Assembly (NCBI GenBank): GCA_001871165.1
Contig: MNUT01000002.1
Location: 1-52,102, forward strand
Length of the DNA stretch: 52,102 bases
Direction of reading: 5' to 3'
DNA from: Candidatus Falkowbacteria bacterium CG1_02_37_21
Lineage (GTDB): Bacteria; Patescibacteriota; Patescibacteriia; Patescibacteriales; UBA12465
A model generated the notes under the pieces. It had not been told where the DNA came from and did no database searches. It worked only from the letters and a program-made list of their open reading frames with translations. This document shows, one piece after another, positions 34,517 to 38,211 of this stretch. A program made the position numbers and the translations under genes. Each line of letters opens with the position of its first letter. Positions within the stretch are counted from its first letter, which is position 1.

Positions 34517-35305
34517 TTACTGACGTCGTTTAAAAATTTCCCAAGTGTTCTGGAATAAAAAGGCGATAGTCATTGGGCCAATACCACCCGGCACCGGCGT
34601 GAGAAAAGAGGCAATATCTTTAGCTTCCTTAGTATCAACATCACCTAAAATTTTATCGCCGACTTTAGTAATACCAATATCAATAATTACCACATCCTTT
34701 TTTAACATTTCTTTTTTTATCTTACCCGGTTCGCCTAAAGCACTCACTATTAAATCTGCTTGCTCCGGATTCTTTTGCAAACTGACAATCATTTCTTCTT
34801 GTTCCAGAAATTTTTTAACACTCTGGCCAAAAACCTCGGAATTATACAGGACGCAAACACTTTTACCGGCCGGCATAAAATTAATATCATCCAAACACGC
34901 TTTAATGGCTGCCAAAACCGGTGATACAATATAATCGGGATGATGAGGATGAAAACCATCCACATCTTTATCCGGTTGAATAGCTTGAATTATTTTATCG
35001 GTATTGAATTGTTTCGGCAGAGGCAGTTGAACTAAAATGCCATCGATCAATTCATCTTTATTTAAAAAATCAATGACAGACAACAATTCTGCCTCTGGAG
35101 TGTCAGCTGCCATTTTATATAAATGAGTATCAATACCCACCTTCTTGCCTTCCTGTTCTTTTTTACTGACATAAAGCTGAGAATCCGAACGATCGCCAAC
35201 TAAAATAATAGCCAAGTTGGGTCTTGGTCCTTTTGACTTTTCAATTTCCGCCGCAATTTTTTTCTTAATTTTTTCGGCAATAGCTTGTCCGTCTATTTTT
35301 TGCAT
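34517..35305 (-). CDS. folD: Methylenetetrahydrofolate dehydrogenase/cyclohydrolase FolD
   Basis: About 262 aa from MQKIDGQAIAEKIKK; the frame extends into glyA but the start after the glyA stop fits the family. It has the signatures YVSKKEQEGKKVGI (catalytic Lys), GILVQLPLP, PDKDVDGFHP and TPVPGGIGPMTIAFL. The usual Rossmann stretch GRSxxVGxP is altered here: CVLYNSEVFGQSVKKFLEQ replaces it, so cofactor binding may differ. It converts methylene-THF to formyl-THF. It starts 5 nt after glyA. Confidence 0.92.
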   Translation of the reverse strand: MQKIDGQAIAEKIKKKIAAEIEKSKGPRPNLAIILVGDRSDSQLYVSKKEQEGKKVGIDTHLYKMAADTPEAELLSVIDFLNKDELIDGILVQLPLPKQFNTDKIIQAIQPDKDVDGFHPHHPDYIVSPVLAAIKACLDDINFMPAGKSVCVLYNSEVFGQSVKKFLEQEEMIVSLQKNPEQADLIVSALGEPGKIKKEMLKKDVVIIDIGITKVGDKILGDVDTKEAKDIASFLTPVPGGIGPMTIAFLFQNTWEIFKRRQ

Positions 35306-35309
35306 CATA

Positions 35310-36551
35310 TTATTTAGTAGGTATCGGGAAACGTTCACAAAGTTCCTTAACTTTTATTTTTAATTCCAATAATTTTTCTTCATCGCCGGCATTCATTAGA
35401 GCTATGTCCATATAATCGGCGATTAATTTCATTTCCGTCTCTTTCATGCCGCGAGTAGTAACAGCCGGGGTTCCTAAACGCAAACCAGAAGGATTCATCG
35501 GCGGATTAGGGTCATTAGGAATAGTAGAGCGTGAAGTAGAAATACCAATTTTTTCTAAAATCTTTTCCGCTTCTTTACCGACTAAATTTTTAGAAGCTAA
35601 ATTTACAACCATCATATGATTATCAGTTCCCCCGGAAACAATCTGATAACCGCGTGTCATAAATTCCTGAGCTAAGGTACGAGCGTTGCTAATAATTTGT
35701 CTGGCATAATCTTTAAATTCCGGACGAAGAGCTTCGCCAAAGGCCACGGCCTTAGCGGCGGTAATATGATCATGCGGACCACCTTGCATACCGGGAAAAA
35801 CAGCGCGATCAACCTGCTTAGCAAACTTTTCCTTACACATTATTATTGCGCCACGCGGTCCCCGTAAAGTTTTATGAGTGGTGGTAGAAACTACATCAAA
35901 AATTGGTACAGGATTTTTTATTTCTCCGGCAGCAATCAAGCCAGCAATATGTGCAATGTCAGCAAAAGTATAAGCCCCTATCTCGTCAGCAATGGCTTGA
36001 AATTTTTCCCAATCAATCTCACGAGAATAGGCACTAAAGCCGGCGACGATCATTTTTGGTTTCTCGGCTAAAGCAATACGACGCACTTCTTCCATATCTA
36101 TCAAACCACTTTTTTCATTCACGCCATACTGCACAAAATTATAAAGACGACCGGAGAAATTAACGCTATGCCCGTGTGAAAGATGACCGCCATGGTCAAG
36201 TTTTAAACCCAAAACTTTATCGCCTGGTTCCAAAAAAGCCATATAAACAGCGGCGTTGGCCGGTGATCCGGATAAAGGTTGCACATTTACATGTTCCGCC
36301 TGAAATAATTGTTTAGCTCGCTCTATTGCCAAAGTTTCTATATCATCAATATTACAATTACCGCCATAATAACGCTTACCGGCGTAACCTTCGCTATATT
36401 TATTGGTTAAAACCGTGGCCATCGCCTCTAAAACAGCCGGCGAAACATAGTTCTCTGAAGCAATAAGTTCTATTTCCTCATTTTGCCGTTTTTCTTCCTT
36501 CTGAACTATTTCCCAAACAGCCGTATCATTTTGTAAATTATTATATTTCAT
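35310..36551 (-). CDS. glyA: Serine hydroxymethyltransferase
   Basis: About 413 aa from MKYNNLQND. It has an ELIASENYVSPAVLEAM start region, GGHLSHGHSVNFSG, and the PLP lysine in VSTTTHKTLRGPRGAIIM. It makes glycine and methylene-THF from serine. It is directly followed by folD, and 57 nt upstream lies the CofE-like ligase gene, so folate one-carbon genes are grouped. Confidence 0.95.
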   Translation of the reverse strand: MKYNNLQNDTAVWEIVQKEEKRQNEEIELIASENYVSPAVLEAMATVLTNKYSEGYAGKRYYGGNCNIDDIETLAIERAKQLFQAEHVNVQPLSGSPANAAVYMAFLEPGDKVLGLKLDHGGHLSHGHSVNFSGRLYNFVQYGVNEKSGLIDMEEVRRIALAEKPKMIVAGFSAYSREIDWEKFQAIADEIGAYTFADIAHIAGLIAAGEIKNPVPIFDVVSTTTHKTLRGPRGAIIMCKEKFAKQVDRAVFPGMQGGPHDHITAAKAVAFGEALRPEFKDYARQIISNARTLAQEFMTRGYQIVSGGTDNHMMVVNLASKNLVGKEAEKILEKIGISTSRSTIPNDPNPPMNPSGLRLGTPAVTTRGMKETEMKLIADYMDIALMNAGDEEKLLELKIKVKELCERFPIPTK

Positions 36552-36607
36552 ATCGTTAATCTTAAGTGAGTGATAATCTTTTGTCAAAAATAATTTTAAA
36601 TAAAATT

Positions 36608-37306
36608 TTATTTAAATTTTCTAAATAAAGGTCCGTACATATCATCTCTTATATCAATTCTTAACTCGTTTTTATTAACCTTATTACAATAACTAACTGG
36701 CGCGCCGCTAATAACGGCGACTGGCTGTCGTTCTGCTCCTTCACCCATTAATAATACCGCTGCTGTGGCTAAACTATCAGCCATATCCACGCTGGAAAAA
36801 TGAAAAGGTCTTCCAAAAATATCTTCTTCCTGACGATAATCTTTTAGACCATGAAAACCGGCATAACCAAGAGCCACGCCGGTAATCCCAGAGCGTAAAG
36901 GTATTACTCGACTATCAGTGATAATCACTCCTAAATTTTTAAGAGAAAATTTGCGACGAAAATGATTACGAATCTTAGCCGCCGATAAAAAGCTGTCTTT
37001 TGGCAAAAGGATTAAATCGCCATTAGCATTACTCTCATCAACCCCAGCGTTAGCCATCACTATTCCCTCTTTAATAGTTAAGTAAACATATTTTGTTTCC
37101 ATTTGAAATTCACTCTCGCTATTAATGATTTCTCTTTTCTGTTTATCACTAACATTCTTCACTACCCTGTTTTCCGCTAAAGCTACAATTTTAGAAGTCA
37201 CCACTAAAATATCACCTTCGGCCAGGCACAAAAAATATTTTTCCAAAAAAAATAATAAATTTTCTCCCGGTTTAAATATCCTGGTTTTGCTGGCTTTTAT
37301 TTTCAT
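36608..37306 (-). CDS. CofE-like gamma-glutamyl ligase
   Basis: 232 aa. It matches the F420-0:gamma-glutamyl ligase (CofE) fold: PGENLLFFLEKYFLCLAEGDILVVTSKIVALAENRVV, then GIVMANAGVDESNANGDLILLP, VIITDSRVIPLRSGITGVALGYAGFHGLKDYR and DMADSLATAAVLLMGEGAE. CofE adds glutamates to coenzyme F420, but no F420 genes are seen. In a context with glyA and folD, folate polyglutamylation is an attractive alternative (CofE relatives glutamylate pterins in archaea). It overlaps the transporter gene by 35 nt. Confidence 0.85.
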   Translation of the reverse strand: MKIKASKTRIFKPGENLLFFLEKYFLCLAEGDILVVTSKIVALAENRVVKNVSDKQKREIINSESEFQMETKYVYLTIKEGIVMANAGVDESNANGDLILLPKDSFLSAAKIRNHFRRKFSLKNLGVIITDSRVIPLRSGITGVALGYAGFHGLKDYRQEEDIFGRPFHFSSVDMADSLATAAVLLMGEGAERQPVAVISGAPVSYCNKVNKNELRIDIRDDMYGPLFRKFK

Positions 37307-37940
37307 AAGATAAAAGATGAATCCCTAAATAAGATAAAGGGGTATAGACAAAGCCCATCCCCACTTTATATAACCACCAAGGCAAACCCATTAAAATTAT
37401 AGTTTTTAAGGGATACACTCCAATAAAAGCGACCAACATAAATATTCCCGTATCTAAAAATTGCGACCACAGGTTAGATAAGTTTGATTGTAGCCAAAAA
37501 GCTTTATCATTTAATTTCTTCTTAAACCAAAAGAAAGCCAATACGTCCTGATATTCACCAATAACATAAGCTAAAAGAGAGGCTAAGGACATCCGCAGAG
37601 AAACGCTAAAGATTGTATTGTATGAATCTTTAAAAGCTAAACCACCCTGAGACCAGGGGGCGCTCAAAGAAATAAGAGAATATAACATAAATACCGCGAC
37701 ACTGATAAATCCAGCCATCACAAAATTCTTAGCCATACGACGGCCATAAACTTGACCAATAACATCCGTAGTTAAGAAGACAAAAGGGAAAAAAATAATT
37801 GATACCGATAAATGTGTACCAAAAATAAAAGGCATGATTTTTAAGCCTAAGGTGTTAGCCGCAAATAAGGACGCTAAGTAGAGCGTAAGGGCGATAATAA
37901 TCCTGAAATTTATTTTTTCTGTTGATATTGAACTTGGCAT
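37272..37940 (-). CDS. VUT/YhhQ-family transporter (COG1738)
   Basis: About 222 aa from MPSSISTEKINF with six predicted helices. It has the family features ASLFAANTLGLKIMPF, VFLTTDVIGQVYGRRMAKNFV, RMSLASLLAYVIGEYQDVLAFFWFKKKL and NLWSQFLDTGIFMLVAFIGVYP. YhhQ imports queuosine precursors; the wider group is labelled vitamin uptake transporter. The in-frame ATG at 37988 falls inside a terminator hairpin and is rejected. A riboswitch-like leader precedes the gene. Confidence 0.9.
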   Translation of the reverse strand: MPSSISTEKINFRIIIALTLYLASLFAANTLGLKIMPFIFGTHLSVSIIFFPFVFLTTDVIGQVYGRRMAKNFVMAGFISVAVFMLYSLISLSAPWSQGGLAFKDSYNTIFSVSLRMSLASLLAYVIGEYQDVLAFFWFKKKLNDKAFWLQSNLSNLWSQFLDTGIFMLVAFIGVYPLKTIILMGLPWWLYKVGMGFVYTPLSYLGIHLLSYENKSQQNQDI

Positions 37941-37973: not shown

Positions 37974-38124
37974 ACAAAAAACGCCCAAGAGGCGTTCCTA
38001 AACAACAAAAAATCGCCTCCAGCTTATGACATACTGTTGGTGGTCGGATTACAACCGGACCAAGTTTTAATATTTTTATTGATTAGCATGGTAATATTAT
38101 ACACTAAATCCCAGCAAAATACAA
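37974..38124 (-). promoter_or_regulatory. Candidate riboswitch with antiterminator/terminator before the VUT transporter
   Basis: Promoter: TTGTAT (38119-38124), 17 nt, TATAAT (38096-38101). The leader then forms GGT(c)CGG/CCGACC (38042-38061) within TTGGT...ACCAA, a short CAG/CTG stem (about 38021-38036), and either GAGGCG/CGCCTC (38014-38019 with 37989-37994) or the terminator AACGCC/GGCGTT (37980-37996) with a T run. The last two share bases, so they exclude each other, as in a transcriptional riboswitch. I cannot match the aptamer to a known preQ1 or THF class. Confidence 0.6.
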
Positions 38125-38211
38125 ATTTTTATTGATTGCTCCGTCAAGCAATTTAAGTTATAATCACTATATAAGTTTAATAAATAATAAATAAATTAAT
38201 TTAAAGAACAT

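What the first reader, a model, noticed from the sequence alone, without database searches (positions are those of the whole stretch)
37974..38101. Unclassified transcriptional riboswitch candidate before a VUT transporter
A promoter, a compact fold around GGTcCGG/CCGACC, then an antiterminator and a terminator that share the same bases. Known preQ1-I, preQ1-II and THF consensus sequences, as I remember them, do not fit. The false upstream ATG inside the terminator shows why gene callers would hide it.
Basis: partly seen in the sequence, partly recalled or inferred. Interest (0 to 1): 0.78.

Follow-up and report, generated by a model that had tools for sequence, protein, structure and literature searches.

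The report
Leader peptide controlling CPR folate genes
The element before this vitamin-type transporter is not a riboswitch but the start of a tiny conserved peptide (ML…TWSGF) that sits before folate-related genes across the Candidate Phyla Radiation, where a ribosome stalling on it most likely switches those genes on, making it a candidate folate-linked ribosome-stalling sensor that appears not to have been described.

Summary
The riboswitch reading is wrong. The 'aptamer' is codons 10-16 of a 21-codon ORF (38089-38024, minus; MLINKNIKTWSGCNPTTNSMS). Its hairpin is not conserved; Rfam gives nothing.

The ORF is conserved as a peptide. 79 distinct CPR leaders encode M-L-x6-T-W-S-(G/S)-F, with third codon positions free, a complete ORF of 14-25 codons, and usually a near-leaderless start. 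They precede Vut_1+CofE-like ligase (folate gamma-glutamyl ligase relative), GlyA, FolB, FolK, FolC, DHFR-like and putative salvage genes. All 24 leader-bearing genomes tested lack dihydropteroate synthase.

Geometry supports one mechanism. In leaders of 17 or more codons a terminator follows, and the antiterminator arm begins at nt 58-70 from the ATG in 52 of 53. Leaders of 16 or fewer codons lack a clear terminator (15 of 16); in at least six an arm at nt 43-56 pairs with the next gene's ribosome-binding site. A ribosome stalled near codon 13 would turn both designs on.

Stalling and its trigger are inferred, not shown. I found no published folate-linked leader peptide or arrest peptide in the literature searched.

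The parts
38096..38101 (-). -10 promoter box TATAAT; the likely transcription start falls at or 1-2 nt from the leader ATG (near-leaderless mRNA)
   Evidence: sequence; across 79 leaders a >=5/6 -10 box lies 5-10 nt before the ATG in 26, against 2-10 in other equal-sized windows; SD-like motif in 4 of 79
38119..38124 (-). weak -35-like TTGTAT, 17 nt from the -10
   Evidence: sequence; below the scan's threshold
38024..38089 (-). leader ORF, 21 codons + TAA: MLINKNIKTWSGCNPTTNSMS*
   Evidence: homologous leaders in 78 other distinct CPR loci
38051..38065 (-). TWSG(F/C) motif, codons 9-13: ACT TGG TCC GGT TGT; proposed ribosome arrest site
   Evidence: unbiased homologue survey
38014..38020 (-). 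antiterminator 5' arm GGAGGCG (nt 70-76 from the ATG), just after the stop codon
37988..37994 (-). antiterminator 3' arm CGCCTCT, overlapping the terminator 5' arm and loop
37977..37999 (-). intrinsic terminator AGGAACGCC TCT TGGGCGTTTTT
37272..37940 (-). Vut_1 (PF02592, 124 bits; TIGR00697) transporter, first regulated gene
36608..37306 (-). CofE-like (COG1478/PF01996) ligase; best hit TIGR04132 'putative folate metabolism gamma-glutamate ligase' (203 bits, below its cut-off 350)
35310..36587 (-). glyA, serine hydroxymethyltransferase (604 bits)
34517..35338 (-). folD, methylene-THF dehydrogenase/cyclohydrolase
   Evidence: 218 bits to FolD models, below their equivalog cut-offs

Best explanation
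This is a leader-peptide attenuator of a folate/one-carbon regulon. A near-leaderless transcript begins with a short ORF. A ribosome translating it normally runs to the stop codon, covers the antiterminator arm at or just after the stop, and the terminator forms (OFF). When the ribosome is arrested by the nascent peptide ML...TWS(G/S)F at about codon 13, the arm stays free, pairs with the terminator's 5' side, and the Vut_1-CofE-GlyA-FolD operon is transcribed (ON). In relatives with a shorter ORF the same stalled ribosome would instead cover an arm that masks the next gene's ribosome-binding site or starts a terminator, again giving ON. Shown computationally: the conserved peptide, its fixed distance from the start codon, the folate regulon, the competing helices, and their position relative to the motif. 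Inferred: the arrest itself, that folate or one-carbon shortage triggers it, and the nature of the trigger.
For: (1) In six Vut_1 homologues from the family, found by protein similarity only, all six leaders encode ML...TWSG with synonymous changes. In the class, nine window-type homologues carry TWSGF/C and three more carry TWSSF at the same position. (2) Of 104 stretches matching the leader pattern in 84,980 genomes, 65 are complete 13-26-codon ORFs, and those with a usable name are CPR (Falkow-, Magasanik-, Uhr-, Kerfeld-, Saccharibacteria, Taylor-, Nomura-, Peregrinibacteria and others). The one exception by name (L129, 'Planctomycetota') is the contig of G021, which lies in the window's own family. 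Nearly all the rest are non-CPR chance hits. Controls with the pattern reversed gave 0 and 1 hits and 0 for TWSSF. (3) Third positions are free: T, S and G codons use all four bases. (4) A search without the ATG constraint found nine leader ORFs, all with ATG exactly 8 codons before T. (5) Downstream genes: Vut_1>CofE (24), CofE first (12), GlyA, FolB, FolK, FolC, DHFR-like. FolP is absent from 24/24 leader genomes, present in 13/14 controls. (6) Terminator in 53/63 long and 1/16 short leaders, Fisher p = 8e-9; in 5/395 shuffles. (7) Antiterminator core begins at nt 58-70 in 52/53 (shuffles 26%) and is tighter relative to the ATG than to the stop (SD 3.3 v 5.3, p = 0.006). Arms pairing with the RBS of short leaders lie at nt 43-56.
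Against: No experiment shows translation, stalling or regulation. Some members (NlpC/P60, FGase-like, oxygenase-like) are only putatively folate-related. TGT is present in 19/21 leader genomes, so Vut_1 could still move queuosine precursors. Several window-type Vut_1 genes have no such leader. The leaders are phylogenetically related, so p-values are optimistic. The motif's first and second codon positions were fixed by the search pattern in most of the set. RBS-masking arms were found by best-helix search without a shuffled control, and the three-part RBS switches of L074, L119, L135 and L140 were read by eye.
Confidence: 0.86

Rival explanations
1. A new riboswitch class: an RNA aptamer around GGTcCGG/CCGACC binds preQ1, THF or a related compound and sets antiterminator against terminator.
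For: Competing helices and a foldable leader; no ribosome need be invoked for the window alone.
Against: The hairpin is not conserved; conservation follows codon structure with free third positions and GGN/AGY exchange; ATG, frame and a stop after 14-25 codons are kept; no Rfam match.
Confidence: 0.04
2. Classical amino-acid attenuation: the ribosome waits at Trp, Ser or Gly codons when the charged tRNA is scarce (GlyA links Ser/Gly to folate).
For: Trp and Ser are invariant and the anatomy is trp-leader-like.
Against: One Trp codon and no other Trp in 79 leaders, no runs of Gly; codon 12 is Gly or Ser. A wait at codon 10-12 would put the ribosome edge near nt 40-47, which fits neither the nt 43-56 nor the nt 58-70 arms well (footprint from established knowledge). 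The regulon is folate, not one amino acid.
Confidence: 0.06
3. Initiation-rate control: folate shortage lowers Met-tRNA formylation, the leaderless ORF is initiated less, the stop-codon region stays free and the antiterminator forms; the peptide itself matters little.
For: Near-leaderless starts; fmt above cut-off in 22/24 leader genomes; formylation may matter more for 70S initiation (PMC7949028).
Against: Does not explain invariant TWS(G/S)F, and in short leaders without terminators less translation should give OFF, the opposite direction.
Confidence: 0.05
4. The ORF encodes a functional small protein and the terminator is incidental.
For: Peptide-level conservation.
Against: Only codons 1-2 and 9-13 are strongly kept; the C-terminal part varies in length and sequence, and the stop region is shared with regulatory helices.
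Confidence: 0.02

Closest known systems
tnaC leader peptide (tryptophanase operon)
   Same: Short leader ORF; conserved residues including Trp in the nascent chain; stalled ribosome prevents transcription termination of downstream genes.
   Different: Different peptide, different phylum, folate regulon; intrinsic rather than Rho terminator; ligand unknown; motif only 8 codons from a near-leaderless start. No sequence relation tested.
ErmC-type translational attenuators (ErmCL)
   Same: Very short leader (arrest within ~10-13 codons), stalled ribosome unmasks the next gene's RBS, as in the 14-16-codon leaders here.
   Different: Antibiotic-induced and resistance-linked; here metabolic genes and a different motif.
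trp/his-type amino-acid attenuators
   Same: Antiterminator arm at the leader stop, covered by a terminating ribosome.
   Different: No runs of codons for a cognate amino acid; conserved peptide motif with free synonymous positions.
THF, THF-II and preQ1-I/II/III riboswitches
   Same: Regulate folate or preQ1 transport and synthesis genes, including transporters, through a leader RNA.
   Different: No aptamer match; the sensor here is a translated peptide.
FolC2 (COG1478) folate genes of chlamydiae (PMC1971073)
   Same: CofE-like ligase in a folate gene cluster of organisms that lack F420.
   Different: No leader peptide described there.

Membership tests
preQ1-I/II/III, THF, THF-II and other Rfam riboswitches | Match to the family covariance model | tested here: not met
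   No match at gathering; at E<=10 only unrelated sub-threshold hits, none to preQ1 or THF families
Riboswitch (any class) | Aptamer sequence and structure conserved independently of coding | tested here: not met
   Hairpin not conserved; codon-wise conservation
Ribosome-mediated transcription attenuator | Short ORF between promoter and terminator | tested here: met
   Window; complete 14-25-codon ORFs in the whole set
Ribosome-mediated transcription attenuator | Mutually exclusive antiterminator and terminator, with the arm placed so that the ribosome position decides | tested here: met
Classical amino-acid attenuator (trp, his) | Several codons for the regulated amino acid in the leader | tested here: not met
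   no second Trp, few Gly, no runs
Nascent-chain arrest peptide (TnaC, ErmCL type) | Conserved residues at fixed distance from the arrest point or start | tested here: met
   ATG exactly 8 codons before TWSGF in 9/9 unconstrained hits; T, W, S, (G/S), F
Nascent-chain arrest peptide (TnaC, ErmCL type) | Ribosome arrest demonstrated, ligand or condition known | not testable with these tools
   Needs toeprinting or ribosome profiling
Folate regulon | Downstream genes belong to folate/one-carbon metabolism | tested here: met
   FolB, FolK, FolC, GlyA, DHFR/RibD-like, CofE-like by Pfam/NCBIfam; FolP absent in 24/24
Queuosine precursor transporter YhhQ (TIGR00697) | Sequence match | tested here: met
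   119 bits, above cut-off
Queuosine precursor transporter YhhQ (TIGR00697) | Transports preQ0/preQ1 or queuine rather than folate | tested here: inconclusive
   TGT present in 19/21 leader genomes, absent in G584, which still has leader + Vut_1 + CofE

The most novel reading that the evidence does not exclude
The ribosome with the nascent ML...TWS(G/S)F chain is itself the folate/one-carbon sensor. One form: arrest depends on the formyl group of its own initiator methionine, which sits a fixed 12 residues from F13, so that loss of 10-formyl-THF is read directly as an unformylated nascent chain. Another form: a folate binds the ribosome-nascent-chain complex. Either would be a new kind of metabolite sensing, used across the Candidate Phyla Radiation in place of THF riboswitches.
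Probability: 0.4. Interest if true: 0.95.

Novelty: new variant of a known kind. Interest (0 to 1): 0.86.

Why it matters
It would be, to my knowledge, the first leader-peptide attenuator for folate metabolism and a widespread regulatory nascent peptide in a group of bacteria whose gene regulation is almost unknown. It also marks a regulon: genes following the peptide (Vut_1, CofE-like ligase, an unassigned membrane protein, NlpC/P60 and N-formylglutamate-amidohydrolase-like proteins) become candidates for folate uptake, retention and salvage in bacteria that cannot make folate. The short/long leader geometry predicts the arrest position to within a few codons, so the idea can be tested directly in vitro.

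Tried and rejected
Riboswitch: rejected. First pattern searches had 18 instead of 19 spacer bases and found only one chance hit in 490 genome searches; they served as an accidental control for spacing. Q-tRNA codon idea (Asn/Asp/His/Tyr codons sensing queuosine): dropped because the conserved motif has none of these and the regulon is folate. Gly-codon starvation: rejected by the TWSSF variant. Trp starvation: disfavoured by geometry and single codon. TGT absence as proof that Vut_1 is not a queuosine transporter: failed, TGT is mostly present. Literature searches for a folate leader peptide, a CPR leader peptide or riboswitch, and CPR arrest peptides returned nothing on point; the library holds only open-licence papers.

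Full report
WHAT WAS CLAIMED.

OBSERVATION. On the minus strand the pieces exist: TATAAT at 38101-38096, the hairpin, the terminator at 37999-37977, and an antiterminator GGAGGCG (38020-38014) x CGCCTCT (37994-37988) that overlaps the terminator's 5' side. The leader folds with z = -2.3. Rfam has no match at gathering in this region and only unrelated sub-threshold matches at E<=10.

WHAT WAS MISSED. Six nucleotides after the -10 box an ATG (38089) opens a 21-codon ORF, MLINKNIKTWSGCNPTTNSMS*, ending at 38024. The supposed aptamer lies inside it. In five other Vut_1 homologues of the family, collected by protein similarity alone, the leader also begins with such an ORF: MLITKNITTWSGF..., MLITKTTRTWSGF..., MLINKNIKTWSGF..., MLNNHRLTTWSGF... 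(two) (peptides).

SPREAD. The pattern ATG-YT-N19-AC.TGG.(A/T)(C/G).GG.T(G/T)(C/T) hits 10 of 111 genomes of the order with no control hits and 19 of 380 of the class with one control hit (one of its hits, L037, lies in a long gene and is chance). A tighter form in 84,980 genomes gave 104 stretches: 65 are complete ORFs of 13-26 codons, and those with an informative record title are CPR apart from L129, labelled Planctomycetota but the same contig as G021 of the window's own family. The other 39 are almost all from other phyla and show no such ORF, i.e. chance. A search for TWSGF codons without any ATG requirement found nine leader ORFs in the order, each with the ATG exactly eight codons upstream; the other ten hits lie in long genes or have no matching start. 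A variant with Ser (AGY) for Gly at codon 12 was first seen upstream of three further Vut_1 homologues and then in 11 genomes of the class with no control hit. The set used below has 79 distinct leaders (68 + 11).

PEPTIDE, NOT RNA. Thr, Ser and Gly codons of the motif use all four third bases. Position 12 exchanges GGN and AGY. The window's hairpin is complete in no other leader, and its mean pairing equals that of slid controls. First and second codon positions of the motif were fixed by the search pattern, so their invariance is evidence only in the homologue surveys.

START. A -10 box (5/6 or better) lies 5-10 nt before the ATG in 26 of 79 leaders, against 2-10 for other equal-sized windows; SD-like motifs are rare (4 of 79). 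Many of these mRNAs are therefore probably leaderless or nearly so (inference).

REGULON. Directly downstream: Vut_1 (usually followed by a CofE-like ligase: 24 cases), CofE-like first (12), GlyA, FolB, FolB next to FolK, FolC, a DHFR/RibD-like protein, NlpC/P60 proteins, N-formylglutamate-amidohydrolase-like proteins, an unassigned membrane protein, oxygenase-like proteins. The window operon continues with GlyA and FolD. COG1478 ligases were predicted as the missing folate polyglutamylation enzyme in chlamydiae from their clustering with folate genes (PMC1971073). All 24 leader-bearing genomes tested lack dihydropteroate synthase (FolP), which 13 of 14 controls have, so they probably need external folate or late intermediates. 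fmt is above its cut-off in 22 of 24. TGT is present in 19 of 21, so a queuosine role of Vut_1 is not excluded.

MECHANISM FROM GEOMETRY. Leaders fall into two designs. Of 63 leaders with 17-25 codons, 53 are followed by a terminator; of 16 leaders with 14-16 codons, one is (p = 8e-9; 5 of 395 shuffles). In the long design the antiterminator core starts at nt 58-70 from the ATG in 52 of 53 (26% in shuffles), and its position is tighter relative to the ATG than to the stop codon. In the short design, six of the best arms that pair with the next gene's ribosome-binding site lie at nt 43-56 (for example L067 AATTAATTCC x GGAATTAATT, L082 TTCCTCTT x AAGAGGAG, L034 TGATTAGG x TCTAATCA); other short leaders have weaker or no such arm, or appear by eye to use a three-part switch (L074, L140) or a terminator whose own 5' arm lies at about nt 48-55 (L196). 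A ribosome with codon 13 in the P site would reach about nt 52-53 (footprint from established knowledge). It would leave the long design's antiterminator free and would cover the short design's masking arm. Both give ON when the ribosome stalls at TWS(G/S)F. A ribosome waiting at codon 10 or 12 would sit 6-12 nt further upstream and fits less well. The two designs occur side by side in front of the same gene families (Vut_1: L196 short, L198 long; FGase-like: L197 short, L191 long), so the contrast is not only phylogeny.

TRIGGER. Because uptake, synthesis and retention genes are controlled, arrest under folate or one-carbon shortage is the simplest reading, but induction by folate (as in tnaC, where the inducer is the substrate) is not excluded. 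The fixed distance from the initiator Met and the near-leaderless start make sensing of Met formylation an attractive, untested idea; formylation is thought to matter more for 70S initiation (PMC7949028).

COMPARISON. It works like a ribosome-mediated attenuator of the tnaC/ErmC kind; it is not a riboswitch and not a codon-starvation attenuator. No described folate leader peptide was found in the open-licence literature searched.

LIMITS. Everything is computational; sequences are related; thresholds for terminators and helices are simple; the pairing with ribosome-binding sites was not compared with shuffles; some leaders are from MAG contig ends with no readable downstream gene.

Noticed in passing
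L013, L022, L025, L036, L099, L107, L111, L126, L141, L190 (downstream of the leader): A recurrent NlpC/P60-family protein (PF00877, 57 bits in L022) follows the folate leader peptide; since P60 enzymes cleave gamma-glutamyl bonds, it may be a folate poly-gamma-glutamate hydrolase.
   Followed up: partly
L030, L123, L131, L191, L197: N-formylglutamate-amidohydrolase-like proteins (PF05013, 41 bits in L123) follow the leader; a possible link to breakdown products of folate or histidine.
   Followed up: partly
L083, L087; also L086, L119, L135: FolB domain fused to an unassigned C-terminal domain that links by BLAST to stand-alone proteins L086 and L135 (weak 2OG-Fe(II) oxygenase match in L135, below cut-off), all behind the leader peptide.
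   Followed up: partly
L012, L034, L066: A membrane protein without a significant Pfam or NCBIfam match follows the leader, in L012 next to the CofE-like gene; a candidate folate transporter.
   Followed up: no
window 38125-38137 and 38072-38084 (minus strand): The 13-mer AATCAATAAAAAT occurs twice, once upstream of the promoter and once inside the leader ORF; possibly a partial duplication.
   Followed up: no
L129 / JALOQQ010000073.1: A contig labelled Planctomycetota carries this CPR operon and equals G021:C41, in the window's family; the record's organism label is probably wrong.
   Followed up: no
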